Source: Mycobacterium pseudokansasii (lineage in GTDB: Bacteria > Actinomycetota > Actinomycetes > Mycobacteriales > Mycobacteriaceae). Taken from it: DNA of 64,000 bases. The notes beneath the pieces were generated by a model that was not told the DNA's origin, searched no databases, and saw only the letters and a list, made by a program, of their open reading frames with translations. The stretch lies in the NCBI RefSeq assembly GCF_900566075.1, contig NZ_UPHU01000001.1, positions 2,728,001-2,792,000 of the forward strand. Reading direction: 5' to 3'. Of this stretch, positions 5,149-21,500 are shown piece by piece (position 1 is the stretch's first letter; each line of letters opens with the position of its first letter). Position numbers and translations under genes: made by a program.

Positions 5149-6057
5149 TCACCCGGGGACGCGCCCAGCGAAGACGGTCTGGGCGCCTGTGCCGTCGTCG
5201 GCGACTTCGTAGACCTCGGGCTCGAAGCCCGCCTCGCGGACATAATCAACGATGTCGCGGCCGAACTCGGTGAACGCCAACAAATCGGCCCCCACCGGAA
5301 TGAACCGGTAAGCTCCGCTACCCCTACCGTGGTAGAGGGGCGGCATCAGGTGCATGATCTCGCCGTCATCGCCTACGCGGGCACGCGCTTCCGTAGTCGT
5401 ACGCGTCCAGACCACCGGCACCGTGAAGACATGACGTCCTCCAGGCCGCAGCACTCGCCGCGTCTCGGCCAGTGCGGTGCGGAAGTCGGGAACGTGCTCG
5501 AGAGTGTCAGACGACAGGACCAGGTCAAAGGCAGCATCGGGGTAGGTAAAGCGACACATGTCTTCGTTACGGACGCCGTCAATGATTTCGCCCAGACGCT
5601 GCGGCCCCCGGTAAGCGGAGAAAGACAGCCGCGGCAGCCGACGCAACAGGACATGCAGCGATCCGAGCGAGCCGATCGTGTTTACTTCGGCGATGTCCAG
5701 GGCGCGAAACGCCGGATCCTCGATCAGTTCGGAGAACGACCCACACCCGGGCGGACCGTAGAGACCGATGAGGACCTCGGCGATCCGCCTCACTCTCAGG
5801 TTGCTGCAGCAAAACCGGCAGAACATGCTCTCGCGCAAGATGTTCGCCCGCGACACGGTGGAATCGGCCCAAAAGGCATGCACGTCGTCCGGGATGGTCC
5901 AGGAATTGAAGGCGAACCTGGTATCGGTGCCGCAGACCACGCAGCGGCCCGCTTTGTCGGCGCGTCGGTCGCGCGGCGGGCGCAGGTTGAGCAGCACAGG
6001 TCGCCCCACTCGCGCTTTCACCGCCGCCGCCACGCCCGCGGGGTTCAAAGTGATCAT
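5149..6057 (-). CDS. SAM-dependent methyltransferase with N-terminal Cys cluster
   Basis: 302 aa from ATG 6057, with GGAGAG upstream. The first part has a probable zinc-binding pattern, CVVCG near residue 39 and CRFCCSN near residue 80. A class I (Methyltransf_11-type) domain follows, with DLVLSSDTLEHVPDF as post-motif II and RRVLRPGGRHVFTVP as motif III. It therefore probably methylates a small molecule, plausibly a sugar hydroxyl of the LOS. The target cannot be read from the sequence. It stands alone on the minus strand, divergent from the GT2 gene at 6373. Confidence 0.8.
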   Translation of the reverse strand: MITLNPAGVAAAVKARVGRPVLLNLRPPRDRRADKAGRCVVCGTDTRFAFNSWTIPDDVHAFWADSTVSRANILRESMFCRFCCSNLRVRRIAEVLIGLYGPPGCGSFSELIEDPAFRALDIAEVNTIGSLGSLHVLLRRLPRLSFSAYRGPQRLGEIIDGVRNEDMCRFTYPDAAFDLVLSSDTLEHVPDFRTALAETRRVLRPGGRHVFTVPVVWTRTTTEARARVGDDGEIMHLMPPLYHGRGSGAYRFIPVGADLLAFTEFGRDIVDYVREAGFEPEVYEVADDGTGAQTVFAGRVPG

Positions 6058-6168
6058 GACTCGCTCTCCATTTAGTAAGCGGTGTTTGCGGTGTAGACAG
6101 ATATTCGTACTATGTTGGTCCACAATCGCGGACGTGCCGCGCAATATGTGAGAAGCCTAGCGCCCGAG

Positions 6169-7260: not shown

Positions 7261-7446
7261 GGCTCTTGGGTGGAACCGAAATGCGATACCGTCCATGACC
7301 GCTGGGGAATCGAACTCCTGCCCTTCCGTTGCCCATGCACTTCCTGAGGCGACGTGTCCCCGGTACCAGGGGAGCGAATGTGGCAGTCAGCGCGCCTCGA
7401 ATACCGGTAGGTACTCAGAGAGTCTTCGGTAATCGGCTTAAGCCTA

Positions 7447-8361
7447 CTAGCGCATTGCTTGTTGCCGTAGTACAGACTCGTACACGCGCTTGACTGTCAC
7501 GGGAAACGGCGTGATTGCCACGCTCTGGAACTCGCGCGGATACTCTGTGCAAAGCCTCAGATCCCGAACGTGATAACGCGAGGACGGGCTGGTCCCGAGT
7601 GCGATGCGGACGGAGCGGTGTGCGACCTGTTGTACCGTTCGTAGCACGGTGCAGACGGACACGGGTCGTTGAGACGAGATATTGCGCAGCAACGGCTCCG
7701 ACGGCTGGTCGCGCACCACATTCTCGACCAGCGCGCACACCATCGCAGCGGCATCATCGACGTATAAGTAGTCGCGCAGTGTCTCCATCGGCACGAAAAC
7801 GTTCAACGATTGTCGCGTGACCGCGGCTCGACATAGCTGACTGACCAGACCCTGCTGTTTCGCAAGATTCTGACCCGGCCCGGCGAGGTTTGAGAACCGC
7901 CCGATGACGAGCGGGACGCGGCCTTGAAGCGTCATCCGCAGGATCTCCTCCTGAGCGAGCTTCGTCTCGCCGTAGGGACTCAGCGGCCGTGGCGTCGTCG
8001 ACTCACTGAACGGGGGGTGAGTCGACCCGGCATAGACGCCGCCCGCGGAGGATGAGAGAAAGAACGCGCCCTTACCTGCCGGCCGAACGTCTCGCAGCCT
8101 TGTGACGAAATGCGACATGATTCGCGTCTCCGCGGCGAGTTTGTCGGCCGTAGAACCGACGACGCCGCTGCCGGCGGCCCAGATGATCGACCAATCGTCG
8201 TTGTGGGCCGTTCGGACGAATCGCTTGAGGTCGGCATCGAGCACTTCGACCGCCGCATCGTCATCCTCCCACGGCACCGAAAGGTGGGTGAACGTCGGAC
8301 CCATCGCCCGCGACACGGCGCTACCGAGAAGTCCGCCGCGACCCACGATCCAGGTAAGCAC
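7447..8361 (-). CDS. NAD-dependent epimerase/dehydratase (extended SDR)
   Basis: 304 aa from GTG 8361. A Rossmann glycine motif (GRGGLLGSAV, residues 7-16) and the catalytic Y-x-x-x-K (PYGETKLAQE) mark an extended short-chain dehydrogenase of the nucleotide-sugar type. Likely chemistry is oxidation, reduction or epimerisation of a nucleotide-activated sugar. The start lies 3 nt beyond the end of the GtrB-like gene (stop at 8365), so the two are co-transcribed. The SDR may therefore make or modify the sugar that the GtrB-like enzyme loads onto the polyprenyl carrier. Confidence 0.85.
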   Translation of the reverse strand: MLTWIVGRGGLLGSAVSRAMGPTFTHLSVPWEDDDAAVEVLDADLKRFVRTAHNDDWSIIWAAGSGVVGSTADKLAAETRIMSHFVTRLRDVRPAGKGAFFLSSSAGGVYAGSTHPPFSESTTPRPLSPYGETKLAQEEILRMTLQGRVPLVIGRFSNLAGPGQNLAKQQGLVSQLCRAAVTRQSLNVFVPMETLRDYLYVDDAAAMVCALVENVVRDQPSEPLLRNISSQRPVSVCTVLRTVQQVAHRSVRIALGTSPSSRYHVRDLRLCTEYPREFQSVAITPFPVTVKRVYESVLRQQAMR

Positions 8362-8364
8362 CCG

Positions 8365-9366
8365 TCAGTCCGCCGGATTGTCGAAGGTGTCACCGGGATC
8401 TCGCACGATGACGTATACGGGCTTGCCCATCGCCATAGTGGCTGAAGCGGCGATGTATTCGGCGATGATCCCCAGGGCGAACAAGGTGGCCCCGCCGACG
8501 ACAAGCACCGCCACGAACACCGATGTCCACCCTTGCACGGTGATACCGCCGACCAGCTTCTGAATCATGCTGTAAATCGCCACACCAAAACCGAGAAGGG
8601 CGAACAAGATGCCCATCATTGACACGAAACGCAGCGGCCGGGTACCCGACGAGATGACGAGGCGCCAAAAATGCGACACCAGGCGACGCAGGGTGTAGGC
8701 GCTTGCAGGTCGTCCTTCTTGGCGCATCATCACCGGACAGGTCGACGGGTTGGCGACAACCCAAGAAAGAGCGACATCCAAAAACACGCCCGCACCGGCG
8801 TAGGCTGCGACACTTCGTCCGGCCTCGCCGAGGATCAATCGGTAACTGTTGAATGCACTGGGCCCGTCAGACGACACCAGGACGTGCACAAACAACCACT
8901 TCGTGATCCGAGACGCCGCGTTGCGCAACACCCCATGCGGCGGTCGATTTCTCGGCGAGGCATACACCAGCTGTGTGCGGTCCCGGTAGGCCGTGTCGAG
9001 CAAGTCACCGATGTAACCCGGGTCGTGCTGCCCGTCCTCGTCCATCGTGACGATCCAGTCCCCGCCCGACGAGGTCATGCCCGCAAGTGTGGCCGGATGT
9101 TGTCCGAAGTTGCGAGACAACCACACCGGGCGCACCCATTCGTCGTGCCCGGCCAACTCACGAACGACTTCTTCGCTACCGCGAATGCCCCGGTCCCACA
9201 CCAGGAGCACCTCGTCGACGCGGAACTCACGACCGTCGCGGGTTTGCTGAGTCGAACGCAGCTGCGCAAGCTCCTTCACCACGCCAGGCAAAGTCGCAGC
9301 TCCGTTGTAGACCGGGATCACAACGCTGACCGAATCCACACGGCTCAACTGACGGTCACCAGTCAC
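8365..9366 (-). CDS. GtrB/ArnC-like polyprenyl-phosphate glycosyltransferase
   Basis: 333 aa from GTG 9366, chosen because GGGGAGG lies 6 nt upstream; the frame is open to 9453. The N-terminal GT2 domain carries VSVVIPVYNGAATL, then WIVTMDEDGQHDP with the DxDGQ metal/nucleotide motif of DPM1/GtrB enzymes. Two C-terminal membrane helices follow (about 240-265 and 275-300), then GKPVYVIVRDPGD. These enzymes transfer a sugar from a nucleotide to polyprenyl phosphate on the cytoplasmic face. It is the first gene of a two-gene unit with the SDR downstream. Together with GtrA and the GT-C proteins to the left it completes a Gtr-type system. Confidence 0.88.
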   Translation of the reverse strand: MTGDRQLSRVDSVSVVIPVYNGAATLPGVVKELAQLRSTQQTRDGREFRVDEVLLVWDRGIRGSEEVVRELAGHDEWVRPVWLSRNFGQHPATLAGMTSSGGDWIVTMDEDGQHDPGYIGDLLDTAYRDRTQLVYASPRNRPPHGVLRNAASRITKWLFVHVLVSSDGPSAFNSYRLILGEAGRSVAAYAGAGVFLDVALSWVVANPSTCPVMMRQEGRPASAYTLRRLVSHFWRLVISSGTRPLRFVSMMGILFALLGFGVAIYSMIQKLVGGITVQGWTSVFVAVLVVGGATLFALGIIAEYIAASATMAMGKPVYVIVRDPGDTFDNPAD

Positions 9367-9589
9367 GCGTTGCCTCCCCAACATACGGCTCCAGTGAAGT
9401 GACTGTACCGATGGATAAGCGGGTAAGTGATGCCAATTGTGGTTCTTCCCCACGGTTCCGGCCGTCGGGGTGGAGACAGCCGGTGTACATGCCGCGTGTC
9501 CCGCTGATTACGGTCCGCGGTGTCGGGCAGCAAGAGTAGACTCATGCGCTCGAAGGCGACCTGGAGTACGAGGGCGCGAAGTATCTAAC

Positions 9590-9766
9590 CGTTGGGGGTC
9601 TTTCTTTCTCATTCGTCATCTTGCGGGGCAAGTGTTCAAACGCTCGTGTCGATGTATTGGAGTATATGACTGTCATAATAGAAGGTAACTTGAGTTGCCC
9701 TTATGCATTAACAGATCGGCCAAGAAAGTGGTTGATTAGGTACCACCCCAAACATAAGCGAGTCCA
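9590..9766 (+). promoter_or_regulatory. AT-rich leader upstream of the amino-sugar operon
   Basis: The roughly 400-bp gap between the divergent GtrB-like gene and rfbF contains an unusually AT-rich stretch, especially 9655-9766 with TATATGA, CATAATAG and GCATTAACAG. It must hold the promoter for the eight-gene sugar operon. I see no unambiguous -35/-10 pair with 17-nt spacing, so the exact start is not assigned. The ribosome binding site before ATG 9767 (AAGCGAG) is weak. Confidence 0.4.
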
Positions 9767-10540
9767 ATGAAAGCCGTAATACTGGCCGGGGGCCTCGGTA
9801 CTCGCCTGAGTGAGGAAACCACGATCCGCCCCAAACCTATGGTGGAGATCGGCGGGCGACCCATCCTGTGGCACATCATGAAACTCTACTCGCATCACGG
9901 TATTCGTGATTTTGTCGTTTGCTGTGGCTATAAGGGTTACGTCATCAAAGAGTATTTCGCCAACTATTTCCTGCACATGTCGGACGTGACATTTGATATG
10001 TCCCTCAACAAGATGGAAGTCCATCGGCACCACGCGGAACCCTGGCGGGTGACGCTGGTTGACACCGGCGACGAAACCATGACGGGCGGGCGGCTGAAGC
10101 GTGTGGCTACCTATATCCAAGATGACGAGGCGTTCTGCTTCACCTACGGTGACGGACTCAGCGACGTGAACATCGGCGCGAGCGTCGAATTCCACCGTCG
10201 GCACGGACGTCACGCCACGGTGACGGCGGTGCTTCCGCCGGGGCGCTATGGCGCCATCGAGTGCGTAGGCAACCAAGTCACGGGCTTCGCCGAGAAGCCG
10301 CGTGGCGACGGCGGCCTCATCAACGGTGGATTTTTCGTTCTGTCTCCGGCAGTACTGGATTACATTGACGGCGATCAAGTTGCATGGGAGGGGCCACCTT
10401 TGGGTCGCCTGGCTGCCGACGGCGAAATGATGGCTTTCGAGCATTCCGGCTTCTGGCAGCCGATGGACACGCTTCGAGAGAAGAACCTGCTCGAAGAACT
10501 GTGGAGTAGCGGCAAAGCGCCGTGGAAATGCTGGCATTGA
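9767..10540 (+). CDS. rfbF: Glucose-1-phosphate cytidylyltransferase
   Basis: 257 aa, the usual length for RfbF. It makes CDP-glucose from glucose-1-phosphate and CTP. The N-terminal nucleotidyltransferase motif [13 protein letters not shown] is followed by [19 protein letters not shown], the RfbF signature. Later [10 protein letters not shown] holds the metal-binding Asp, and [12 protein letters not shown] is the conserved end. It is the first gene of an operon running to 17540 in which every junction overlaps. The CDP carrier points to a 3,6- or 4,6-deoxyhexose pathway rather than the standard dTDP-rhamnose route. Confidence 0.95.
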
Positions 10541-11616
10541 ACGCATTCGGAACTGCTTATCGCGGGCGCCGGGTCCTCGTCACCGGCCACACGGGCTTCA
10601 AGGGCAGCTGGTTGTGTCTGTGGCTACATGCCCTGGGCGCTGAGGTGACCGGGCTGGCTTTGGACCCATCGTCGAAGCCCAACCATTGGGACCTGTTGAA
10701 GCTATCGATCAACGATCATCGCATCGACATTCGCGATGAAGCTGCAGTCCGTGGGATTTTCGCCGCGGAAAAGCCGGAGATTGTTTTCCACCTGGCCGCC
10801 CAACCGTTGGTCCGCCGGTCCTACCGCGAGCCGGTCACCACGTGGGCCACCAACGTGATGGGCACGGTGCATGTACTCGAGGCTGCCCGTGCCACGCCAG
10901 CTGTGCGTGCCGTGGTGGTCGTGACGACCGACAAGTGTTACGAGAATCGCGAATGGCCGTGGGCCTACCGAGAAAGAGACCGGCTGGGCGGTCACGACCC
11001 CTACAGTGCCTCCAAGGCCGGGGCCGAGTTGGCGGCGGCGAGCTACCGGACTGCCTTTCTGCAACACTCGCCGGCATCGCTGCTCGCAACCGCTAGGGGC
11101 GGCAACGTGATTGGCGGTGGTGACTGGTCTGAGGACCGGCTGATTCCCGATTTGGTGCGCTCCGTCGTCGCCGGCGACACGCTGGTCATTCGCTCGCCAC
11201 GCGCCACGCGCCCTTGGCAACATGTACTCGATTGCCTCAGCGGGTATCTGCTACTGGGCCAGCGGCTGCTGGCAGGTGACGACAGGTGCGCAGATGCTTG
11301 GAATTTCGGCCCCGATGAGAAGGGTAACCGCACGGTAGAGCAGGTGCTCCGAGACCTTGCCCGCACCTGGCCGAAGCTTCGTTGGCAACAGACAACCGAT
11401 CCGCAGCCACACGAGGCGGGCTTGCTGCAACTTGACAGCGCCAAGGCCAGAATGCATCTCGACTGGCGTCCCGTCTGGGATCTTGACAAAGCGATCCACC
11501 ACACGGCCAACTGGTATCGCCATTGGCTGGAACTTGGTGAAGTGTTAAGCGCCGACCAACTGGACGCCTACATCGGCGATGCGGTCACTCTAGATCTGAC
11601 GTGGGCCTCCGCATGA
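10522..11616 (+). CDS. rfbG: CDP-glucose 4,6-dehydratase
   Basis: 364 aa extended SDR that converts CDP-glucose to CDP-4-keto-6-deoxyglucose. [14 protein letters not shown] is the Rossmann motif with the GFKGSW form specific to RfbG. The catalytic YSASK motif follows HDP, and a Thr-Asp pair (VTTDKCYEN) is in place. The start overlaps rfbF by 19 nt (GTG 10522, with ATG 10528 as an alternative). Its product is the branch point for the epimerase, C-methyltransferase and aminotransferase that follow. Confidence 0.95.
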
Positions 11617-12164
11617 ATATCCTCGACAGCCCGATCGCCGATCTCAAGGTTGTTCAGTCCCTGCCCCACCGCGATGCCCGCGGAGCTTTCGTCCGGCTCT
11701 TTTGCGCCGACGAACTTCAGTCTCTGCTGGGCCACCGCCAGATCGCGCAGATCAACCACTCCAGAACCAGCCATGCGGGGGCCGTGCGGGGGATGCATTT
11801 TCAAAATCCGCCACATGCGGAAATGAAAATGGTCCGCTGCCTTCGCGGCCGGGTATGGGACGTCGCGGTGGACCTGCGGTCCGGCTCTCCGACGTTTCTT
11901 CGGTGGTACGCCCAGGAACTGGCGGCAGACGACGCGCAGATGCTGATCATCCCCGAGGGCTTCGCGCACGGCTTCCAGGTCTTGGAGCCTGACAGCGAAT
12001 TGCTATACCTCCACACGGCTTTCTATCACCCGCCTTCCGAGGGCGGTCTGCGTCACGACGATCCGCGGCTTGCCATCGCGTGGCCATTGCCGCCGCAAGA
12101 CCTATCACCTCGTGATCTGGCCCATCCGCTGCTGGATGCTGATTTCACCGGAGTCGCGCTATGA
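11613..12164 (+). CDS. NDP-4-keto-6-deoxysugar 3,5-epimerase-like cupin (RfbC family)
   Basis: 183 aa from ATG 11613, sharing ATGA with the rfbG stop. It has the RfbC cupin layout: LPHRDARGAFVRLF, then QINHSRTSHAGAVRGMHFQ with the catalytic His in RGMHFQ, VWDVAVDLR and IPEGFAHGFQVLE. RfbC proteins epimerise C3 and/or C5 of 4-keto-6-deoxy sugars. In this CDP-sugar operon the substrate is probably a CDP-4-keto-6-deoxyhexose rather than dTDP. An epimerisation would allow an L-configured product. It could epimerise one centre only; the sequence does not decide. Confidence 0.9.
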   Translation: MNILDSPIADLKVVQSLPHRDARGAFVRLFCADELQSLLGHRQIAQINHSRTSHAGAVRGMHFQNPPHAEMKMVRCLRGRVWDVAVDLRSGSPTFLRWYAQELAADDAQMLIIPEGFAHGFQVLEPDSELLYLHTAFYHPPSEGGLRHDDPRLAIAWPLPPQDLSPRDLAHPLLDADFTGVAL

Positions 12165-13384
12165 AATGCCGACACTGCGGGGCGCCCGTGGAACACAGTT
12201 TCGTGGACCTGGGCTTTGCGCCACCGTCCAACGCCTACCTGCATGCCGAGGACCTCCGTCACCCGGAGGTGCACTACCCCCTGCGTGTGCTGGTGTGCCA
12301 CCGGTGTTGGTTGGTGCAGACCGAGGACTACGCTCGCGCCGAGGAACTGTTCAGCGCCGACTACGCCTACTTCTCCAGCACCTCGAGCACTTGGCTCGGT
12401 CACGCGGCCAGCTATGCGGACATGATCACCGAACGGCTACAACTTGGGCCCAAGAGCTTCGTCATCGAGGTGGCCTCAAACGACGGCTACCTACTCAAGA
12501 ACTTCGTGGCAGCCGGGATCCCGTGCCTGGGAATCGAGCCGACGACGAGCACGGCCGAGGCCGCCGAAGCACTGGGCATCCCGGTCAGGCGGGAATTCTT
12601 CGGGGAAGCCTTGGGTCATCGACTGGCCAGTGAAGGATGGTCGGCGGATCTGGTTGCGGGTAACAATGTGTACGCTCACGTGCCCGACATCAACGACTTC
12701 ACCCGTGGGCTGGCCGCCGTACTCAAGCCCGAAGGCAGCGTCACGCTGGAATTTCCCCATCTGATGCCGTTGATCGACCGCACTCAGTTCGACACCATTT
12801 ATCACGAGCACTTCTCGTACCTGTCGCTGACGACCGTGGCGCGTATCTTTGCCAAGGCCGGCTTGCGGGTATGGGACGTGGAAGAGTTGCCTACCCACGG
12901 CGGCAGCCTGCGAGTGTATGGCTGCCATGCTGGGGCCGCGAACTCCACCACGGACCGCGTGGCTTCGCTGCTGAGGCGGGAGGACGAGTTCGGCTTGACC
13001 CGGCCCGAGACCTATACGGCCTTTCAGTCGCGTGCGGATCGGGTGAAGGATGACCTCTTGGCCTTCCTCATCGAAGAAAAGCGTGCCGGCCGGCGGGTGG
13101 CGGCCTACGGTGCCGCGGCGAAAGGTAATACCTTGTTGAACTACGCAGGCGTCAGGCCGGACCTACTTCCATACGTTTGTGATGCCGCGCAGTCCAAGCA
13201 GGGAAAATTCATGCCAGGAAGCCACATTCCCATCTATTCGCCTGAGGTGCTGTGCGAGAACCCGCCAGACGACGTGGTCATTTTGCCCTGGAACATCGCC
13301 CATGAGGTGCGGAGCCAGTTGGCTGATCTTGTCAACAGCGGCACACGTTTCGTGACGGCGGTACCTGAATTGAGCTATCTGTGA
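12161..13384 (+). CDS. NDP-hexose 3-C-methyltransferase (TylC3-type)
   Basis: 407 aa with the three-part layout of sugar C-methyltransferases. The N-terminal zinc ribbon is CRHCG (residues 3-7) and CHRCW (about 47-51). The central SAM domain has FVIEVASNDGYLL as motif I. The C-terminal Methyltransf_14 domain contains VAAYGAAAKGNTLLNY. Family members such as TylC3 add a methyl branch at C3 of a 4-keto sugar. The conserved YHEHFSYLS catalytic motif is present. ATGA overlap with the epimerase indicates coupled translation. A 3-C-methyl branch matches kansosamine-type sugars. Confidence 0.92.
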   Translation: MKCRHCGAPVEHSFVDLGFAPPSNAYLHAEDLRHPEVHYPLRVLVCHRCWLVQTEDYARAEELFSADYAYFSSTSSTWLGHAASYADMITERLQLGPKSFVIEVASNDGYLLKNFVAAGIPCLGIEPTTSTAEAAEALGIPVRREFFGEALGHRLASEGWSADLVAGNNVYAHVPDINDFTRGLAAVLKPEGSVTLEFPHLMPLIDRTQFDTIYHEHFSYLSLTTVARIFAKAGLRVWDVEELPTHGGSLRVYGCHAGAANSTTDRVASLLRREDEFGLTRPETYTAFQSRADRVKDDLLAFLIEEKRAGRRVAAYGAAAKGNTLLNYAGVRPDLLPYVCDAAQSKQGKFMPGSHIPIYSPEVLCENPPDDVVILPWNIAHEVRSQLADLVNSGTRFVTAVPELSYL

Positions 13385-14490
13385 AGCCCCGCATCGCTTA
13401 CACCAAGCCGTCAATCACCGAGCTCGAGGTGCGCTACGCCACCGATGCCGCCACAAACGGTTGGGGAGAGCGTTGCTACGAATACATCCAGCGCTTCGAA
13501 AGCGCCTTCAAGGCACACCTCGGGGTCAAACACGCGATCGCCACCTCGAGTTGCACCGGTGCGCTGCACATGGGCATGGCCGCGCTCGGAATCGGCCCAG
13601 GTGACGAGGTCATCATGGCCGACACCAACTGGATCGCCACGGCCGCGCCCATCGTTCACCTCGGGGCGAAACCGATATTTGTCGACATCGTGCCGGAGAG
13701 TTGGTGCATCGACCCGGACCTGGCCGAAGCTGCCATCACCCCGCGCACCAAGGCCATTGTCGCTGTGCACCTGTATGGCAATCTTTGCGAGATGGACCGT
13801 CTCCTGGCAGTAGGACAGAAGCACGGTATCCCGGTGATCGAGGACGCGGCCGAGGCGATTGGTTCGATTTACCACGGAAAGCGTGCCGGTTCCATGGGGC
13901 GTTTTGGGACCTTTTCGTTTCACGGCACCAAGACGATCACCACCGGTGAGGGCGGCATGTTCGTCACCAATGACGACAACCTGTACGAGGAAGTTCTTAC
14001 GCTGAGCAACCACGGCCGCGCGCGCAGCCAGACCAAGCAGTTCTGGCCGGATGTGGTTGGCTTCAAATACAAAATGTCGAACATCCAGGCAGCCATCGGT
14101 TGCGCGCAGATGGAACGTATCGATGATCTGATTTCACGAAAGCGGGAGATATTTCGGGTCTACAAGCGTGGGTTGGCCGGCGTGCTGGGGGTATCGATGA
14201 ACCCTGAGCCGACGGGTACCCAAAATGGATTCTGGATGCCGACTGTTGTATTCGAAGAGTCAACCGGGGTGACGACCGAGCGTCTTACGGCTGCATTCGC
14301 GGCCGAAAATATCGATGCCCGGGTTTTCTTTCATCCGCTATCGACGACCCCTCCGTTCGCAGGATCGCCTGGAGGCAAATGGGCCGGCAACATTTCGGAC
14401 TGTGCAATCAATATTCCCAGTTTCCATGACATCACCGAAATCGAGCAGTGCCGAGTCGTGCAAGTTGTCCGGGAGATTTGCGTTGCATGA
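13381..14490 (+). CDS. DegT/DnrJ/EryC1 PLP-dependent sugar aminotransferase
   Basis: 369 aa from GTG 13381, overlapping the C-methyltransferase by 4 nt. The PLP Lys is residue 184 in SFHGTKTITTGEGG, and the PLP-ring Asp is in VIEDAAEAIG (about 152-161). It closely resembles perosamine/GDP-4-keto-6-deoxymannose 4-aminotransferases in its SSCTGALHM and NHGRA motifs. It should convert the 4-keto group to a 4-amino group. With the preceding genes this gives a CDP-4-amino-4,6-dideoxy-3-C-methylhexose, ready for N-acylation. Confidence 0.93.
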   Translation: MKPRIAYTKPSITELEVRYATDAATNGWGERCYEYIQRFESAFKAHLGVKHAIATSSCTGALHMGMAALGIGPGDEVIMADTNWIATAAPIVHLGAKPIFVDIVPESWCIDPDLAEAAITPRTKAIVAVHLYGNLCEMDRLLAVGQKHGIPVIEDAAEAIGSIYHGKRAGSMGRFGTFSFHGTKTITTGEGGMFVTNDDNLYEEVLTLSNHGRARSQTKQFWPDVVGFKYKMSNIQAAIGCAQMERIDDLISRKREIFRVYKRGLAGVLGVSMNPEPTGTQNGFWMPTVVFEESTGVTTERLTAAFAAENIDARVFFHPLSTTPPFAGSPGGKWAGNISDCAINIPSFHDITEIEQCRVVQVVREICVA

Positions 14491-15517
14491 GAAGAGCCCG
14501 CGGGTGCTTATTGCCGGGATCGCGGGCGCATCGCTTGGGACCGAGATCGCCAAGGCCCTCAACCATGCCGGCGGTTATGACATCTTGGGATGCGACATCT
14601 CCCCGCTCGCTTTCGGGCACTATGACGTGCGTTTCGCCTCGACCTTCCTCGTCGACCGCGAAGCCTATGCCCAAAATCTGCTGGACCTTTGCGTCCGCGA
14701 GCAGGTCGATTGCATCATCCCGGGTGGCGACGAGCCCGCGATCCTCATCGGCAGAGACCACGAGCTGTTTGCGCGCGCCGGGATACGGCTCGGCCAAAAC
14801 AACCCACAGCTCACCGAGCGCCTTGCCCACAAGGGTCACTGCTTCGAGATCCTTGAGAGTGCCGGTATCAGAACGCCGCGGACCCGAACGGTGGATCCGG
14901 GGACCGACATCGGCGACTTCCCGATGCCGTGCATCGTCAAGCCGGCGGTGGCGAGCGGCGGCAGCGTATTTGTGTTCTTTGTCAGGAGCCCTGAGGAAGC
15001 GCGCCTGTACTGCACCTACCTGCACAACAATGGCCGGACCCCGCTACTTCAGGAATACCTGCCGGAGGACAGAGGCGAGTTCACGGTCGGCGTTCTTTCG
15101 TTGCCCGACGGCAGCTGCGCGGGGGCGATAGCCCTCAAGCGCGCGTTTCACAGCAAACTTTCCGTCTCTATGCGCGGCCCGGACTTCCTCATTTCGAGCG
15201 GATATAGCCAGGGTCTGATCGACGATTATCCAGCCATCTGCGAGACCGCCGAACTGATCGGCAGGCGCCTCGGTAGCACCGGCCCCTTGAACATCCAGGG
15301 ACGCGTCGCCACCGACGGCACGTTCGTTCCCTTCGAAATCAACACCCGGTTCTCTGCCAGCACCTATCTGAGGACACTCGCGGGTTTCAACGAGGTCGAT
15401 TGGTACGTCCGGCACCTTCTCGGCCTCGCGCCGCGGGGCGCACTCGGCATCAGTCCGGGATGGTATTTGCGAACCCTGAGCGAGGTCGCCGTTCCGCTCT
15501 GGCAGGTCGTGAAATGA
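14483..15517 (+). CDS. ATP-grasp ligase (CarB/PylC-like)
   Basis: About 344 aa from TTG 14483, chosen for GGGAGA just upstream; GTG 14504 is an alternative and the frame is open to 14315. VLIAGIAGASLGTEIAKAL is a pre-ATP-grasp Rossmann-like start. Then come CIVKPAVASGGS (ATP-binding loop), LLQEYLPEDRGEF and the metal-binding end FVPFEINTRFSASTY with the E-I-N-x-R signature. ATP-grasp enzymes make acyl-phosphates and join them to amines or thiols. Directly after a sugar 4-aminotransferase, the attractive inference is amide formation on the amino sugar or synthesis of the acyl donor. It overlaps the aminotransferase by 8 nt. The substrate is unproven. Confidence 0.85.
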   Translation: MHEKSPRVLIAGIAGASLGTEIAKALNHAGGYDILGCDISPLAFGHYDVRFASTFLVDREAYAQNLLDLCVREQVDCIIPGGDEPAILIGRDHELFARAGIRLGQNNPQLTERLAHKGHCFEILESAGIRTPRTRTVDPGTDIGDFPMPCIVKPAVASGGSVFVFFVRSPEEARLYCTYLHNNGRTPLLQEYLPEDRGEFTVGVLSLPDGSCAGAIALKRAFHSKLSVSMRGPDFLISSGYSQGLIDDYPAICETAELIGRRLGSTGPLNIQGRVATDGTFVPFEINTRFSASTYLRTLAGFNEVDWYVRHLLGLAPRGALGISPGWYLRTLSEVAVPLWQVVK

Positions 15518-16767
15518 TCCGATGGATCGTCGAAGGCCGACTCGGGACCGCGCCCGGTGACAGCATCGCGCGCGACCGCCCGTTTCACGTGGTCGATACG
15601 AGAACCATGGTCGACAAGCGCGGCAACTCGGCTGATGACCTGCTCGACAAGATCCGCGAGGGCGTGGCGGAACTCGAGGGCGGCGGCTCCGTCGTGGTTG
15701 TCTGCGATTTCGGCGTGTCGCGCAGCAACACGATCGCAGCCGGGATTCTAGCCGAATGGCGCGGCCTGGATTTCGATGCGGCGGTGGCTCAGGTCATCGC
15801 GACGACGGGAGAGCACGCGGTCAAGCTTGAGATGGTTGACTCCCTGCGCGCGGCACTGCGGAAGTCGCCCACGCCGATGCGCCAGGACGGCATCCTCATC
15901 ACCGGCAGCAGCGGCTTTCTGGGGGCCGCCTTACGCGACCGCCTCGCGGATTCGCATCGTGTCGTTGCGCCCGACCGCACCACGGTAGACCTGCTGGGTC
16001 CCGTGGTCCACTTTGACCGCTATTGCCGCGACAACGAGATTGGAAAGATCGTTCATCTCGCCTACCCGCGGATCTACACCAACAACGACGCTATGGGCCA
16101 CAGCTTGACCATGTTGCGGGGGGTTCTCGACGTCTGCAAATCGCTCGGAATTCACCTTGTCCTGCCCTCGGGCGCAGTGGTGTTCTCGGCGTACAGGTCG
16201 AGCTCGATGATTGCGGACGTCAACACAACGATGCGTCCTCGGGGGGTATACGGCGAAACAAAATTTCTCGAAGAAGTCCTCGTTGAAAATGCGCGGGCCA
16301 ACGGTGAAGTCAGTTCCACTATCGTTCGAATCTCACCGACTTTCGGTCCGCAAAGCTTGCGTCCGCGCTTGATATGGTTCGCGCATCGGCGCCTGAAAGA
16401 AGGACGACCGATCGTGACCCACCGCTATCGCAACGGGTTGCCTAGTCTGCAGCTTCTCTACATTGATGACGCTATCGAGGGGCTTGCCAGCATCATAGAA
16501 AAGAAAGGAAACGCTCCGATCTACCATCTGGGTGGAAGTTCCTCCCATGAACCGCGCGAAATCATCAACGAAATGGCCGAGATCCTCGGGTGCCATGCGG
16601 CGATCGACGAGACTAGCATCGATGACGACATCGCGAACGTCTTCCTTGATTGGTCAGCAACGGAGACGGAATTGGATTGGCGGCCGACGACCACCCTAAG
16701 TGACGGGCTGCGCCGCACACTTGCGAGCGCCGCTTCTCCCGATATTCAGTCCGGAAAAGGTGAGTAA
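15514..16767 (+). CDS. Fusion of a dual-specificity phosphatase-like domain and an SDR epimerase/dehydratase
   Basis: 417 aa from ATG 15514, overlapping the ATP-grasp stop. Residues 1-115 look like a cysteine-phosphatase fold: VVVVCDFGVSRSNTIAAG contains C64-x5-R70-S71, the P-loop signature, but the usual His before Cys is Val. The second part is an extended SDR with GSSGFLG (131-137) and the catalytic Y246-G-E-T-K250. The two activities on one chain suggest sequential steps on a phosphorylated or nucleotide-linked sugar. Alternatively the phosphatase part only binds phosphate. I do not know a characterised protein with this order. It lies between the ATP-grasp and TylF-like genes with overlaps at both ends. 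Confidence 0.8.
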   Translation: MIRWIVEGRLGTAPGDSIARDRPFHVVDTRTMVDKRGNSADDLLDKIREGVAELEGGGSVVVVCDFGVSRSNTIAAGILAEWRGLDFDAAVAQVIATTGEHAVKLEMVDSLRAALRKSPTPMRQDGILITGSSGFLGAALRDRLADSHRVVAPDRTTVDLLGPVVHFDRYCRDNEIGKIVHLAYPRIYTNNDAMGHSLTMLRGVLDVCKSLGIHLVLPSGAVVFSAYRSSSMIADVNTTMRPRGVYGETKFLEEVLVENARANGEVSSTIVRISPTFGPQSLRPRLIWFAHRRLKEGRPIVTHRYRNGLPSLQLLYIDDAIEGLASIIEKKGNAPIYHLGGSSSHEPREIINEMAEILGCHAAIDETSIDDDIANVFLDWSATETELDWRPTTTLSDGLRRTLASAASPDIQSGKGE

Positions 16768-17540
16768 TGGATAACCGCTTTTCGATGCTCGACGCGCGCA
16801 CACAAACTTCCGCGGACGAGCAATACGCTACTAAGGTTCAGGAATTCTTTAGCGCCGGCGAAGGTGACATACTCGCCAAACTGAAGAACTTCGCGAAGTT
16901 TGTTCCGCGACAGACAATGGCGACGTTCCTGGCCAAGAACGAGATCTTCAAGCAAATCGTGGACGTTCACGGCCATATCATCGAGTGTGGTGTCTTCATG
17001 GGGGGCGGCTTGATGACGTGGGCGCAGCTCTCGGCGATCTACGAGCCGTACAATCACACACGACGAATCGTGGGGTTCGACACCTTCGCCGGTTTCCCCA
17101 GCCTCGCGGACCAGGATGCGACAGCGGCGGACGCAACTCTGTCATTTGCCAAGGTCGGTGGCTTGGCGGTTCAAGGCATCGAGGATGACATTCGGCACGC
17201 TGTGTCGCTGTACGATCTCAATCGTCCGCTTGGGCATATCGACCGAGTGGAACTCGTCAAGGGTGACGCCCAACAGACGATCCCTGCTTATCTGGCAGAC
17301 AACCAGCACACGGTGGTCGCGCTTCTCTACCTCGACTTTGATCTGTTCGAACCGACCCTAGCGGCGATCAGGACTTTCCTGCCAAGAATGCCCAAAGGCG
17401 CCGTACTCGCCTTCGACGAGCTCAACCAGAAATACTGGCCCGGCGAGACCCTTGCCGTACTGGAGTCGGCCGGAATCAGGAATCTCCGTATCAGGAGATT
17501 TCCATTTACGCCGCAAATTTCTTACGCGGTGCTGGACTGA
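16767..17540 (+). CDS. TylF/MycF-type sugar O-methyltransferase
   Basis: 257 aa, last gene of the operon, with a TAATG overlap to the fusion gene. It matches the TylF family (PF05711): VHGHIIECGVFMGGGLMTWAQ near residue 70-90, then VGFDTFAGFP, ALLYLDFDLFEPT and LAFDELNQ with the Asp residues that bind Mg2+ in MycF/TylF. These enzymes methylate a hydroxyl of a 6-deoxyhexose. Kansosamine carries a 2-O-methyl and its N-acyl group is a methoxypropionyl in M. kansasii LOS, so either could be the target. That assignment is inference. Confidence 0.88.
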   Translation: MDNRFSMLDARTQTSADEQYATKVQEFFSAGEGDILAKLKNFAKFVPRQTMATFLAKNEIFKQIVDVHGHIIECGVFMGGGLMTWAQLSAIYEPYNHTRRIVGFDTFAGFPSLADQDATAADATLSFAKVGGLAVQGIEDDIRHAVSLYDLNRPLGHIDRVELVKGDAQQTIPAYLADNQHTVVALLYLDFDLFEPTLAAIRTFLPRMPKGAVLAFDELNQKYWPGETLAVLESAGIRNLRIRRFPFTPQISYAVLD

Positions 17541-17810: not shown

Positions 17811-18467
17811 TCAAACTGCCGGTGCGGCCACGCACGCGTACTGCAGAAACACCCCGTCGGCGAAGTACCCGCCGCTCAACACGATGAACAGCGCGCCAAA
17901 CGGCCCCAAAAAGGGGTTGATGCCTTTGATGCGCTGGACGGCGTAGCCCGCGTCCTCGAACATCCGCACGATGCTGCTGCGCGTGAAGAAACGCAAGTGG
18001 GTGCGGTCGAAGATGCCAAAGTCCTCTTGGGGGAAGTCTTTTCGGAACACCACCTTGCCCAGCGCGGGCAGGTAGCGGATGTTGGGGATCGACGCGACGA
18101 CGACACCGTCGGGTTTGAGCTTGCCCCGAAGCTGGGTCAGTGTCTCGAGTGGATTGACCAGATGCTCCAAGACGTCGTTACAGACGATCGCGTCGAAGTA
18201 GCCATCAGGCAGCTCGGCGATCCGCTGGTTCGCGTCGCCGGCCAGCACATGATCGAGGATGTCGCCGGCGCGTCGGGCCGCTTCCTCGTTGTATTCGATG
18301 CCCCAGACTTCCGCGCCCCTGCCTTTCTTGAGTTGGGCGCTGAAGACTCCCTGGCCGCAGCCAAGTTCGAGCACGCGTTGCGCGTCGGCCGGGATGAACT
18401 TCAGCATCTCCGGCCGTTTGTGGCCGTAGTACTCGGTGACGCTTTTCGATTCCGGCAAGATTCGCAT
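17811..18467 (-). CDS. Class I SAM-dependent methyltransferase (paralogue of 46045-46746)
   Basis: 218 aa. Motif I is VLELGCGQGVFSAQL, then the acidic post-I residue in WGIEYNE, DAIVCNDVLEHLVNP and LKPDGVVVASIPN. The second half is strongly conserved with the methyltransferase at 46045, including FRKDFPQEDFG and FFTRSSIVRMF. The C-terminus ends in a hydrophobic segment that may associate with the membrane. It is probably a sugar O-methyltransferase acting in LOS assembly. It stands downstream of pks5 copy 1 on the same strand. The 270-bp gap to the TylF gene shows no supportable gene. Confidence 0.85.
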   Translation of the reverse strand: MRILPESKSVTEYYGHKRPEMLKFIPADAQRVLELGCGQGVFSAQLKKGRGAEVWGIEYNEEAARRAGDILDHVLAGDANQRIAELPDGYFDAIVCNDVLEHLVNPLETLTQLRGKLKPDGVVVASIPNIRYLPALGKVVFRKDFPQEDFGIFDRTHLRFFTRSSIVRMFEDAGYAVQRIKGINPFLGPFGALFIVLSGGYFADGVFLQYACVAAPAV

Positions 18468-18522: not shown

Positions 18523-21500
18523 TCACGAAGACGTGGTGGCTTCTTCCGGGGCCAACTGTGCGAACAGGTGGTCGGCCAAACCCCGCACCGTGGTGATGTC
18601 GGTGGAGCTGATCCGTATCCCGGTTTCGGACTGGACACGGGTGCGCAGTTCCAGGTTGCCCAGCGAATCCAGTCCGTACTCGGACAGTTGACGGTCCGGA
18701 TCGATGGTGCGCCGCAGGATGAGGCTGACCTGCTCGGAGACCAGACGCCGCAGCAGGCCCGGCCATTCGTCCACCGGCACCGAAGCCAGCTCGTTGCGGA
18801 ATTTGCTTGAGCCCGAACGTCCTTGCTCGGATGCCTTGAACGCCTCGGCGAACTTGCTTCGCTCGGCAAAAGCGGCCACCCACGGCACTCCGACGGTGGG
18901 GGAGTAGCCGGTGTAGGCACGGTCGTGGCGAAGCATCGCCTCGAACGCGTAGGCGCCCTCCTCGGGAGCGATCGCGGCGTCGGTGCTTTCTGCCAATGCG
19001 ATGGCCCGTCCAATCTCGGCCCACGCACCCCAGGCGATCGCGATGGTCGGCAAGCCCTGCAACTGTCGCCAATGCGTGAAGGCATCCAACCAACTGTTGG
19101 CCGCGGCGTAGGCGCCCTGGCCCGGTGAGCCCAGCATGGCCGCCGCCGACGAGAACGAGCAGAACCAGTCCAGCGGCTGATCGACGGTGGCCTGGTGCAG
19201 ATGCCAGGCGCCGTACACCTTGGGCGCCCAGTCCCGGTCGAGCAGCTCGTCGCTGATGTTGGTCAGGGTGGCGTCCTCGACCACGGCAGCCGCGTGGAGC
19301 ACACCGCGCAACGGGAGTCCGGTGGCGGTTGCATTGGCCACCAACCGCTCCGCGGTGCCGCCCTGACCGATGTCGGCGCACTCCACCACGACATCGGATC
19401 CGATCGAACGGATGAGTTCGATTGTCTCTAAGGCTTTTTGGCTGGGTGCGGACCTGGAGCTGAGGACAATCCGGCCCGCGCCGGCGGTGGCCATCTTCTC
19501 GGCCAGGAATAGCCCCAGCCCACCCAGGCCACCGGTGATGATGTAGGAGCCGTCGCCACGGAATACAGGCACCTGCTCCGGCGGCAACACCACGCTACTG
19601 CTTCCGGCACGCGGGATATCGAGGATGAGCTTGCCGGTGTGGTCGGCGGCACCCATCACCCGGATCGCGGTGGCCGCATCGGCCAACGGGTAATGCGTGC
19701 TCTCCGGCATCGGCAGCGTGCCGTCGGCGGTCAGCCGGTACACCGTGCTCAACAGCTCGCGGATGTACTGCGGGTGGGTGAGCGACATCATCCCCAGGTC
19801 GACACCGTAGAAGGACAGGTTGCGCCGGAACGGGAACAGCCCCATCTTGGTGTCGCCGTAGATGTCGCGCTTGCCGATCTCGATGAAACGTCCACCCCAG
19901 GAAAGCAATTCCAGCCCGGCGCGCTGCGCTGCGCCGGTCAGCGAGTTGAGCACGATGTCGACGCCGTAGCCGTCGGTGTCACGGCGGATCTCCTCGGCGA
20001 AGTCGATGCTGCGCGAGTCGTAGACATGTTCAATCCCCATGTCACGCAACAATTGCCGGCGCTTGGGGCTGCCCGCGGTGGCATAGATCTCGGCTCCGGC
20101 CGCACGGGCCATCGCGATCGCGGCCTGGCCCACCCCGCCGGTTCCGGAGTGGATGAGCACCTTGTCACCCGCTTTGATCCGGGCCAGGTCATGCAGCCCG
20201 TACCAGGCAGTGGCGTGCGCGGTGGTTACCGCCGCGGCCTGGGCGTCGGTCAGGCCCTGCGGAATCGGCGTGGCCAGGTTCGCGTCGCAGGTGACAAACG
20301 TCGCCCAGCAGCCGCGGGGTGACATGCCGCCGACATGATCACCGACCTGGTGCGTCGTGACGTCGGGCCCCACAGCCGTTACCACACCCGCGAAATCGGT
20401 GCCCAGCTCCGGCATCCGGCCATCCGGCGAGTTGTAGCGACCGAATGTGACCAGAACATCGGCGAAGTTGATGCTGGACGCGCTGACGGCGACTTCGATC
20501 TCGCCGGGCCCCGGTGTAACCCGGTCGAAGGCGACGAATTCCATGGTCTGTAGATCACCCGGAGTACGGATCTGCAGGCGCATGCCTGCGGATCCGTGAT
20601 TCACCACAGCCGTCTTGCGCTCTTCGGGACGCAATGGCGCGGGCGACAAGCGTGCGGTGTACCACTCGTCGTTTCGCCAGGCGGTCTCGTCTTCTTCCGA
20701 GCCGGACAGCAGTTGGTGCGCGACGTGCTCGGCCTGGGTGTGCTCGTCGACATCGATGTGGGTGGTGTGCAGGTGCGGATGCTCGGCACCGACGACCCGC
20801 AACAGACCTCGCAGCCCGGCCTGCTCGAGGTTGGGGCTGTCTGCGGCGAGTACGGTCTGTGCGTTACGGGTGACCACATACAAGCGGGGCGCCTCGCCCA
20901 TGATTTCCGGTAGCTCGCGGGTGATGCGCACCAGGTGCCGGACGCACTCGACGCCGCGGACCGCGCTCTTCTCGTCGCGGTCGCCGCTGTCCGGCGCGGT
21001 CAGGATGACCACATTGTGAAAACCGCCGGCATTGAGCTGGTTTCGCAGCCGCTCGGCGACACCGGCATGGTCGGTGTGTTCTGGCCAGCTCATCGTTGCG
21101 CACTGCGCGCCGTGCGACTTCAACGTGTCGGTCAACTCGGTCGCCACTAGGTCCGCAAGGTCGGTGGTGCTGATCAGCAGCCACGTTCCGGCGTCGGCGA
21201 GGTCCAGCTCGGGCAGCTCACGCTGCTGCCATTCGATGGTCAGCAGCCGCTCGCCGAGTACGCGATCCCGGTTGCCTTGCTCGGAAACCCCTGTGCCGAG
21301 CCGTAACCCACGCACGGCCACCAGCACGGTCCCGTGCTCGTCGAGTACGTCGAGGTCCGCGTCGACCCCGGCCGCGTCGACGTTTGTCACCCGCGCATAG
21401 CAGTAGTGGGCATTGCGCGTGGAGGCGTAGGCACGGATCCGGCCCACACCCAACGGCAACATCAGACCACCGTTGCCCGCGACCTGGACGTCGGGGTGAG

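What the first reader, a model, noticed from the sequence alone, without database searches (positions are those of the whole stretch)
14483..17540. ATP-grasp ligase, phosphatase-SDR fusion and TylF methyltransferase as a linked trio
These three genes overlap by 1-4 nt and follow a sugar 4-aminotransferase. I know of no described pathway that uses this combination. A workable hypothesis: the ATP-grasp enzyme forms an amide on the amino sugar, or builds the acyl precursor; the fusion protein prepares or reduces the acyl/sugar intermediate; and the TylF enzyme adds the O-methyl. M. kansasii and M. gastri LOS carry an N-2-methoxypropionyl group on kansosamine, which would need such steps.
Basis: partly seen in the sequence, partly recalled or inferred. 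Interest (0 to 1): 0.82.

Follow-up and report, generated by a model that had tools for sequence, protein, structure and literature searches.

The report
Amide-building module beside a mycobacterial aminosugar
Three adjoining genes in the surface-glycolipid cluster of Mycobacterium kansasii look like the machinery that puts an acyl cap on a rare amino sugar, and distant relatives of the ligase often sit beside a phosphatase of an unrelated kind, which suggests that the acid is added in a phosphorylated form.

Summary
The trio is real: ATP-grasp ligase (14483-15517), phosphatase-like/SDR fusion (15514-16767), TylF-type O-methyltransferase (16767-17540), overlapping by 4 and 1 nt, under purifying selection. 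It ends a CDP-sugar operon (cytidylyltransferase, CDP-glucose 4,6-dehydratase, 3,5-epimerase, C-methyltransferase, aminotransferase) in the published M. kansasii LOS cluster; N-acylkansosamine is the fitting product. Six mycobacterial loci keep the order. A Rhodobacter MAG contig carries most of the cassette, with a CmcI-type O-methyltransferase instead of TylF. In the fusion family the CX5R phosphatase residues are kept in 104 of 104 members with the domain, the SDR tyrosine in 94 of 105. New here: relatives of the ligase without the fusion (19-45% identical where measured) lie with a phosphatase in 17 of 21 loci read, of three other folds (calcineurin-type, PHP, HAD), and in 6 of 21 with a separate SDR too. 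Ligase + phosphatase, often with SDR, is a recurring module, here packed into two genes. Best reading: the ligase joins a probably phosphorylated small acid to the 4-amino group, the phosphatase domain unmasks it, the SDR sets its oxidation state, an O-methyl follows. Acid, order and methylation site are inferred.

The parts
9767..10540 (+). glucose-1-phosphate cytidylyltransferase (MKAN27440 by the published order)
   Evidence: NCBIfam TIGR02623 equivalog, 466.8 bits against cut-off 300; order as in Table 1 of PMC4403928
10522..11616 (+). CDP-glucose 4,6-dehydratase
   Evidence: NCBIfam TIGR02622 equivalog, 484.2 bits against cut-off 278
11601..12164 (+). sugar 3,5-epimerase (dTDP_sugar_isom family)
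   Evidence: Pfam PF00908, E 8e-58
12161..13384 (+). sugar C-methyltransferase (Methyltransf_13/23/14 architecture)
   Evidence: Pfam PF08421, PF13489, PF08484; 71% identical to the Rhodobacter MAG copy
13381..14490 (+). DegT-family sugar aminotransferase (4-position inferred)
   Evidence: Pfam PF01041, E 2.6e-122; 71% identical to the Rhodobacter MAG copy; below the cut-off of each NCBIfam model listed
14483..15517 (+). ATP-grasp carboxylate-amine ligase (NCBIfam PRK12767.1-1, carbamoyl phosphate synthase-like)
   Evidence: NF009402 261.9 bits against cut-off 218; ATP-grasp fold, Foldseek E 2.6e-17 to 2pn1; K153, E285, N287, R289 kept in at least 15 of 16 rows, one row being mis-framed
15514..15861 (+). 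N-terminal phosphatase-like domain of the fusion (residues 1-116); CX5R loop C64-R70, candidate general acid D34
   Evidence: D28, R30, D34, C64, S69, R70 in 104 of 104 family members that have the domain; profile match to solved PTP/DSP enzymes, best E 2e-4
15886..16767 (+). C-terminal extended SDR domain (residues 125-417), nucleotide-sugar type, with GxxGxxG, S219 and Y246xxxK250
16767..17540 (+). TylF-family O-methyltransferase, nearest solved relative CalS11 (TDP-rhamnose 3'-O-methyltransferase)
   Evidence: Pfam TylF 49 bits; phmmer to CalS11 E 9e-46; dN/dS 0.008-0.062 against three relatives
8365..9453 (-). family-2 glycosyltransferase MKAN27435, divergent neighbour needed for LOS-IV to VII
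   Evidence: published primers match exactly, at 9339 on the minus strand and from 8365; phenotype in PMC4403928

Best explanation
The trio completes N-acylkansosamine (or its close relative in other species) on the CDP-sugar made by the five upstream genes. The ATP-grasp enzyme makes an amide between a small carboxylic acid, most likely one carrying a phosphate, and the 4-amino group. The CX5R domain of the fusion removes the phosphate. The SDR domain sets the oxidation state of the acyl group (pyruvoyl to lactoyl would fit 2-methoxypropionyl). TylF adds an O-methyl, on the acyl hydroxyl or at sugar O-2. Shown: the genes, their linkage and selection, conservation of the phosphatase residues, likeness of the cassette across phyla, and recurrence of ligase + phosphatase, in part with SDR, with unrelated phosphatases. 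Inferred: substrates, order, and the identity of the acid.
For: CDP-sugar steps identified as equivalogs. The cassette lies in the published LOS cluster. Gene order AT-ligase-fusion-TylF in all 6 mycobacterial loci read (window, L032/L055, L033/L056, L034/L057, L035/L059, L058). The Rhodobacter MAG contig L036/L060 carries dehydratase, epimerase, C-methyltransferase, aminotransferase, ligase and fusion, the last two overlapping by 4 nt. Phosphatase partners in ligase loci without the fusion: calcineurin-type in L068, L072, L076, L077, L080; PHP in L081, L082; HAD in L079, L083, L086-L093. In L080 the order is aminotransferase, ligase, SDR, phosphatase, the same four activities as here. Ligases 58-61% identical have a calcineurin-type (L077) or a PHP (L081, L082) partner. 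The SDRs next to the ligase in L076, L077, L081, L082 are the four best matches to the fusion's SDR profile outside the fusion family in the 24 loci searched. Precedent: in C. jejuni capsule an ATP-dependent ligase adds (S)-serinol-phosphate as an amide and a separate phosphatase removes the phosphate (PMC13276843, passages).
Against: The ligase-fusion pair of L063 has no aminotransferase in its 20 kb. The SDR tyrosine is missing in 11 of 105 members, including both Rhodobacterales loci L060 and L063, so a redox step cannot be universal. Of 21 distant ligase loci, 4 lack a counted phosphatase neighbour (L067, L069, L084, L085), and an aminotransferase was seen in only 12 of 21. L069 has aminotransferase, C-methyltransferase and ligase with no phosphatase recognised. 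L081 and L082, and L087 and L088, are near relatives and not independent. The SDRs of L080 and L072 (56.7 and 49.5 bits) do not stand out from unrelated SDRs. The MKAN27435 mutant is read by its authors as a fucose defect. No enzyme of the trio has been assayed here. DSPc is below Pfam's cut-off for this protein.
Confidence: 0.55

Rival explanations
1. The ligase couples a free hydroxy acid (lactate or methoxypropionate) directly; the phosphatase-like domain is a regulatory or binding remnant and the SDR acts on the sugar ring.
For: C. jejuni-like chemistry is only an analogy. The SDR's closest folds are sugar epimerases and dehydratases. L069, L084 and L085 keep the ligase without a phosphatase recognised nearby.
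Against: The catalytic D, C and R of the phosphatase are invariant in 104 of 104 while the SDR tyrosine varies; a remnant would hardly be kept like that, or have counterparts of three other phosphatase folds beside related ligases.
Confidence: 0.2
2. TylF is the rhamnose 3-O-methyltransferase of the LOS core (3-O-Me-rhamnose) and has nothing to do with kansosamine; only ligase and fusion belong together.
For: Nearest solved relative CalS11 is named TDP-rhamnose 3'-O-methyltransferase. All M. kansasii LOS subclasses contain 3-O-Me-rhamnose (PMC4403928). In two Rhodobacterales loci a CmcI-family enzyme stands near the ligase instead.
Against: Table 1 of PMC4403928 lists no M. marinum orthologue for MKAN27475, and M. 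marinum LOS also has 3-O-Me-rhamnose (recalled). TylF overlaps the fusion by 1 nt here and stays with it in the 6 mycobacterial loci.
Confidence: 0.25
3. The cassette makes a different 4-amino sugar or acyl group from kansosamine in this strain, with the same module logic.
For: The acyl group cannot be read from sequence; related ligase-phosphatase pairs sit with genes that look like sialic-acid, formyltransferase and flagellin-glycan genes.
Against: The window is M. kansasii LOS DNA and the enzyme set (4,6-dehydration, 3,5-epimerisation, C-methyl, amino, O-methyl) matches kansosamine as recalled.
Confidence: 0.12

Closest known systems
Campylobacter jejuni HS:2/HS:19 capsule amidation (Cj1438C/HS19.11C ligase with Cj1435/HS19.09 phosphatase)
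   Same: ATP-dependent amide ligase working with a phosphorylated small partner on a surface glycan, followed by a dedicated phosphatase (PMC13276843, passages)
   Different: There the sugar supplies the carboxylate and the partner the amine; here the sugar should supply the amine. The passages seen name no SDR or methyltransferase in that step; homology of the ligases was not tested.
NCBIfam NF009402 / PRK12767.1-1, carbamoyl phosphate synthase-like ATP-grasp protein
   Same: The window protein and the S. meliloti pSymB protein (L082) both pass its cut-off
CalS11, TDP-rhamnose 3'-O-methyltransferase (TylF family)
   Same: Match over residues 39-253, E 9e-46; nucleotide-sugar O-methylation is a fitting activity
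   Different: Substrate and position here unknown
L-amino acid ligases RizA and YwfE (ATP-grasp)
   Same: Same fold; both are among the 50 Foldseek rows listed (4wd3, 3wo1); acyl-phosphate chemistry is recalled
   Different: 13-19% identity in the rows listed; amino-acid substrates

Membership tests
PRK12767.1-1 ATP-grasp family | score above the NCBIfam cut-off | tested here: met
   261.9 bits against 218
PRK12767.1-1 ATP-grasp family | ATP-grasp fold with conserved Lys, Glu, Asn, Arg ligands | tested here: met
   model pLDDT 89.5; Foldseek E 2.6e-17; K153, E285, N287, R289 conserved; their role as ligands is recalled
Dual-specificity / tyrosine phosphatase superfamily (CX5R) | CX5R(S/T) loop and an upstream acid | tested here: met
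   C64-R70, D28 and D34 in 104 of 104; which Asp is the acid is inferred
Dual-specificity / tyrosine phosphatase superfamily (CX5R) | Pfam DSPc score above cut-off | tested here: inconclusive
   16.3 bits against 33.5, so below it for this protein; profile of the domain family reaches PTPs at E 2e-4; the domain was not folded alone
Dual-specificity / tyrosine phosphatase superfamily (CX5R) | phosphatase activity | not testable with these tools
   needs an assay
Extended SDR, nucleotide-sugar type | Rossmann GxxGxxG, catalytic Ser/Thr, YxxxK | tested here: met
   G131, G134, G137, S219, Y246, K250 present in the window protein
TylF (macrocin) O-methyltransferases | Pfam PF05711 above cut-off | tested here: met
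   49 bits against 23
CDP-glucose-derived deoxysugar pathway | glucose-1-phosphate cytidylyltransferase and CDP-glucose 4,6-dehydratase | tested here: met
   TIGR02623 and TIGR02622 equivalogs
C. jejuni-type ligase + phosphatase amidation | ligase uses a phosphorylated partner, phosphatase acts after the ligation | not testable with these tools
   only the linkage of ligase and phosphatase genes was seen
N-acylkansosamine biosynthesis | loss of the gene removes or shortens N-acylkansosamine | not testable with these tools
   only MKAN27435 next door has a mutant seen here, read by its authors as a fucose defect (PMC4403928)

The most novel reading that the evidence does not exclude
A three-activity relay for capping amino sugars: an ATP-grasp ligase uses a phospho-acid (phosphoenolpyruvate or 2-phospholactate) as a masked acyl unit, a phosphatase of any of at least four unrelated folds unmasks the amide, and an SDR reduces it (pyruvoyl to lactoyl), before O-methylation. 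The mycobacterial fusion would carry out the second and third steps in one protein.
Probability: 0.2. Interest if true: 0.85.

Novelty: new variant of a known kind. Interest (0 to 1): 0.62.

Why it matters
It assigns a testable role to five genes (by position MKAN27455 to 27475) beside a published M. kansasii LOS gene and proposes how the species-specific antigen N-acylkansosamine gets its cap. It also gives a handle on a large ATP-grasp family whose name states no pathway: find its phosphatase and SDR partners. If the phospho-acid relay is right, it would be a way to acylate amino sugars without acyl-CoA or ACP, with ligase-phosphatase pairs seen in polysaccharide and probable flagellin-glycan loci of bacteria and, with a HAD partner, in a haloarchaeon.

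Tried and rejected
Rejected: the trio as an indivisible unit (in L060 and L063 a CmcI-family methyltransferase stands near the ligase and no TylF was found by tblastn). M. gastri as a second kansosamine maker (weak evidence, see verdict). A plasmid-borne copy of the fusion (no plasmid match at 1e-15) and a viral one (6 pattern stretches in IMG/VR, none a relative).

Led nowhere: solved relatives of the ligase by single sequence (none at 0.1; the profile finds carbamoyl-phosphate synthases, best E 1.4e-13); the 1984 kansosamine paper is not held, so the sugar's structure is recalled; a search for methoxypropionyl terms gave nothing on biosynthesis among 5 papers. Weak viral hits L070 and L071 were not read. 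Loci L037-L048 and L003-L031 match only the SDR part and were left out of family counts. Plasmid hits beyond those fetched were not read (for example 5 of the 30 rows listed, of 102 records, were fetched from that call). In one search the L076 row was mis-framed and its numbers are void; correct frame. Whether the fusion's SDR and the separate SDRs share a substrate was not resolved.
Full report
What is there. The window holds the three genes at the stated places. The ligase starts at TTG 14483, supported by alignment with relatives, and overlaps the aminotransferase before it by 8 nt. The fusion starts 4 nt inside the ligase gene and TylF 1 nt inside the fusion gene. NCBIfam names two upstream genes as glucose-1-phosphate cytidylyltransferase and CDP-glucose 4,6-dehydratase (equivalogs); Pfam gives a 3,5-epimerase, a C-methyltransferase and a DegT aminotransferase.

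Where it is. Published primers for MKAN27435 of M. kansasii match the window exactly at 9339 (minus strand) and from 8365. Table 1 of PMC4403928 (section read) lists this region as the LOS cluster, with MKAN27440, 27445, 27450 and 27475 having no M. marinum orthologue; it does not list the genes between 27450 and 27475. By position these are the C-methyltransferase, aminotransferase, ligase and fusion. The paper suggests that glycosyltransferases unique to M. kansasii serve fucose and N-acylkansosamine; the MKAN27435 mutant lacks LOS-IV to VII, which its authors read as a failure to add fucose (passages). So the cluster is published; no role for the trio appeared in the listings, of which several were capped (for example 20 of 54 papers and 15 of 134, titles and abstract starts only). 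The structure of kansosamine (4,6-dideoxy-2-O-methyl-3-C-methyl-4-(2-methoxypropionamido)hexose) is recalled; the 1984 paper is not held.

How it is kept. In 297 genomes of the genus, 5 (the window's own included) have the fusion at E <= 1e-40; in 188 genomes of the phylum, 1 (the own one) has the ligase at E <= 1e-40. Six distinct mycobacterial loci (this one, M. attenuatum, M. innocens, M. persicum, Mycobacterium sp. Marseille-P9652 and the unnamed G162) all have aminotransferase, ligase, fusion and TylF in that order. dN/dS against three of them (L032, L034, L035) is 0.096-0.140 for the ligase, 0.176-0.206 for the fusion and 0.008-0.062 for TylF. The genes from 9767 to 17540 have G+C 0.57-0.63; of four other large genes in the window two have 0.67-0.68 (18523, 33193) and two 0.625 and 0.640 (27518, 52497), so the low G+C is only a weak sign of transfer.

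Outside mycobacteria. A database search that scored the 8000 best candidates gave 102 fusion proteins at E <= 4e-50, one of them a fragment without the phosphatase domain; named sources include Bradyrhizobium diazoefficiens, Tabrizicola, an uncultured Ruegeria and an Azonexus MAG. A Rhodobacter MAG contig (L036/L060) carries dehydratase (58%), epimerase (49%), C-methyltransferase (71%), aminotransferase (71%), ligase (56%) and fusion (37%), with a CmcI-family O-methyltransferase and a further methyltransferase before the ligase; the 11-kb contig shows no cytidylyltransferase and no TylF. A second Rhodobacterales locus (L063) has ligase, fusion and the CmcI-type gene but no aminotransferase in 20 kb. 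Such loci are rare: the fusion in 1 of 385 alphaproteobacterial genomes, the phosphatase domain in 2 of 341 of the order and 1 of 100 of the family of the second one, the starting genome counted each time.

The main new point. I read 21 loci of ligase relatives without the fusion: L067, L068, L069, L072, L076, L077 and L079-L093. Their ligases are 19-45% identical to the window's in the 12 rows validly measured. For L082 the hit table already showed the PHP neighbour before I fetched it; for the others it did not. A phosphatase is the direct neighbour in 13, the next gene after an adjoining SDR in 3 (L076, L077, L080), and three genes on in 1 (L089): 17 of 21. The folds are calcineurin-type (L068, L072, L076, L077, L080), PHP (L081, L082) and HAD (L079, L083, L086-L093). 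Pfam confirmed 12 of the 17; L080 rests on NCBIfam YfcE at 63.2 bits against 56.25; L089, L090 and L093 rest on record annotation and L088 on likeness to L087. Four loci lack it: L069, L084, L085 and L067 (L067 has a HAD-like gene two genes on, beside an rpe-like gene, by eye; not counted). An aminotransferase was seen in 12 of 21 (for L086-L088 only ORF starts were looked at).

A small control. In the 11 loci with record annotation (L072, L079, L082-L085, L089-L093) the ligase has a phosphatase as direct neighbour in 8 of 11, while the DegT or class I/II aminotransferases of the same loci have one in 0 of 7 (one of them, in L083, has a 'metal-dependent hydrolase' of unstated kind beside it; the gene tables are incomplete).

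The SDR. In 6 of 21 (L072, L076, L077, L080, L081, L082) a separate SDR belongs to the same gene group, in L072 one gene away from the phosphatase; L080 reads aminotransferase, ligase, SDR, phosphatase, near genes whose products look like flagellar FlaG and FliD by eye. Ligases 58-61% identical to each other have a calcineurin-type partner in L077 and a PHP partner in L081 and L082. The SDRs of L076, L077, L081 and L082 are the best matches to the fusion's SDR profile outside the fusion family (67.8-82.0 bits; other SDRs 60.1 or less; the SDRs of L080 and L072 score 56.7 and 49.5 and do not stand out). What seems conserved is phosphatase activity, not one phosphatase.

How it most likely works. 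A ligase that so often has a phosphatase beside it suggests a phosphorylated substrate or product. C. jejuni capsule synthesis shows this logic: an ATP-dependent ligase adds (S)-serinol-phosphate to glucuronic acid and a separate phosphatase removes the phosphate (PMC13276843, passages). Here the amine is on the sugar, so the phosphate should be on the acid. For a 2-methoxypropionyl cap, phosphoenolpyruvate or phospholactate would fit; after phosphoenolpyruvate, dephosphorylation gives a pyruvoyl amide that the SDR could reduce to lactoyl, and a methyltransferase could finish it. Each of these substrate statements is inference. Kansosamine needs two O-methyl groups (recalled); TylF would supply one of them, and other methyltransferases lie at 5149-6144 and 17811-18467. 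The only CmcI-family match in this genome lies about 0.75 Mb away.

Against. Missing SDR tyrosines in 11 of 105, the L063 locus without an aminotransferase, four distant loci without a phosphatase, nine without an aminotransferase seen, and the absence of any assay keep confidence moderate.

Noticed in passing
L069 (IMG/VR contig 3300009788_000098): A contig classed as viral carries C-methyltransferase (partial), 3,5-epimerase, aminotransferase, SDR, CmcI-type O-methyltransferase and a 46% identical ligase, followed by genes mostly on the other strand that look by eye like tail or structural genes. No match for the ligase in 50,697 phage records at 1e-10.
   Followed up: partly
L035/L059 (Mycobacterium sp. 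Marseille-P9652): The CDP-glucose 4,6-dehydratase orthologue is missing between cytidylyltransferase and epimerase; a 46% identical dehydratase lies after TylF instead, as if one copy replaced the other.
   Followed up: no
L058:11341-12129: In G162 a CmcI-family rhamnosyl O-methyltransferase follows TylF directly, a candidate for a second O-methyl.
   Followed up: partly
window 17811-18467 (-): Methyltransf_23 gene between TylF and the large gene at 18523, converging on TylF; a candidate second LOS methyltransferase.
   Followed up: no
L082 (S. meliloti pSymB) 7261-9931: A PHP phosphatase, ATP-grasp, SDR operon follows cysD/nodQ/cysQ-type sulfate activation genes; ligase matches on 76 Sinorhizobium plasmid records.
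   Followed up: partly
L086:3130-7510: An ATP-grasp/HAD pair lies beside genes resembling neuC, PIG-L deacetylase and neuB by eye in Ensifer adhaerens.
   Followed up: no
P0114: An 86% identical ligase is recorded under the bracketed, doubtful name Mycobacterium [tuberculosis] TKK-01-0051.
   Followed up: no
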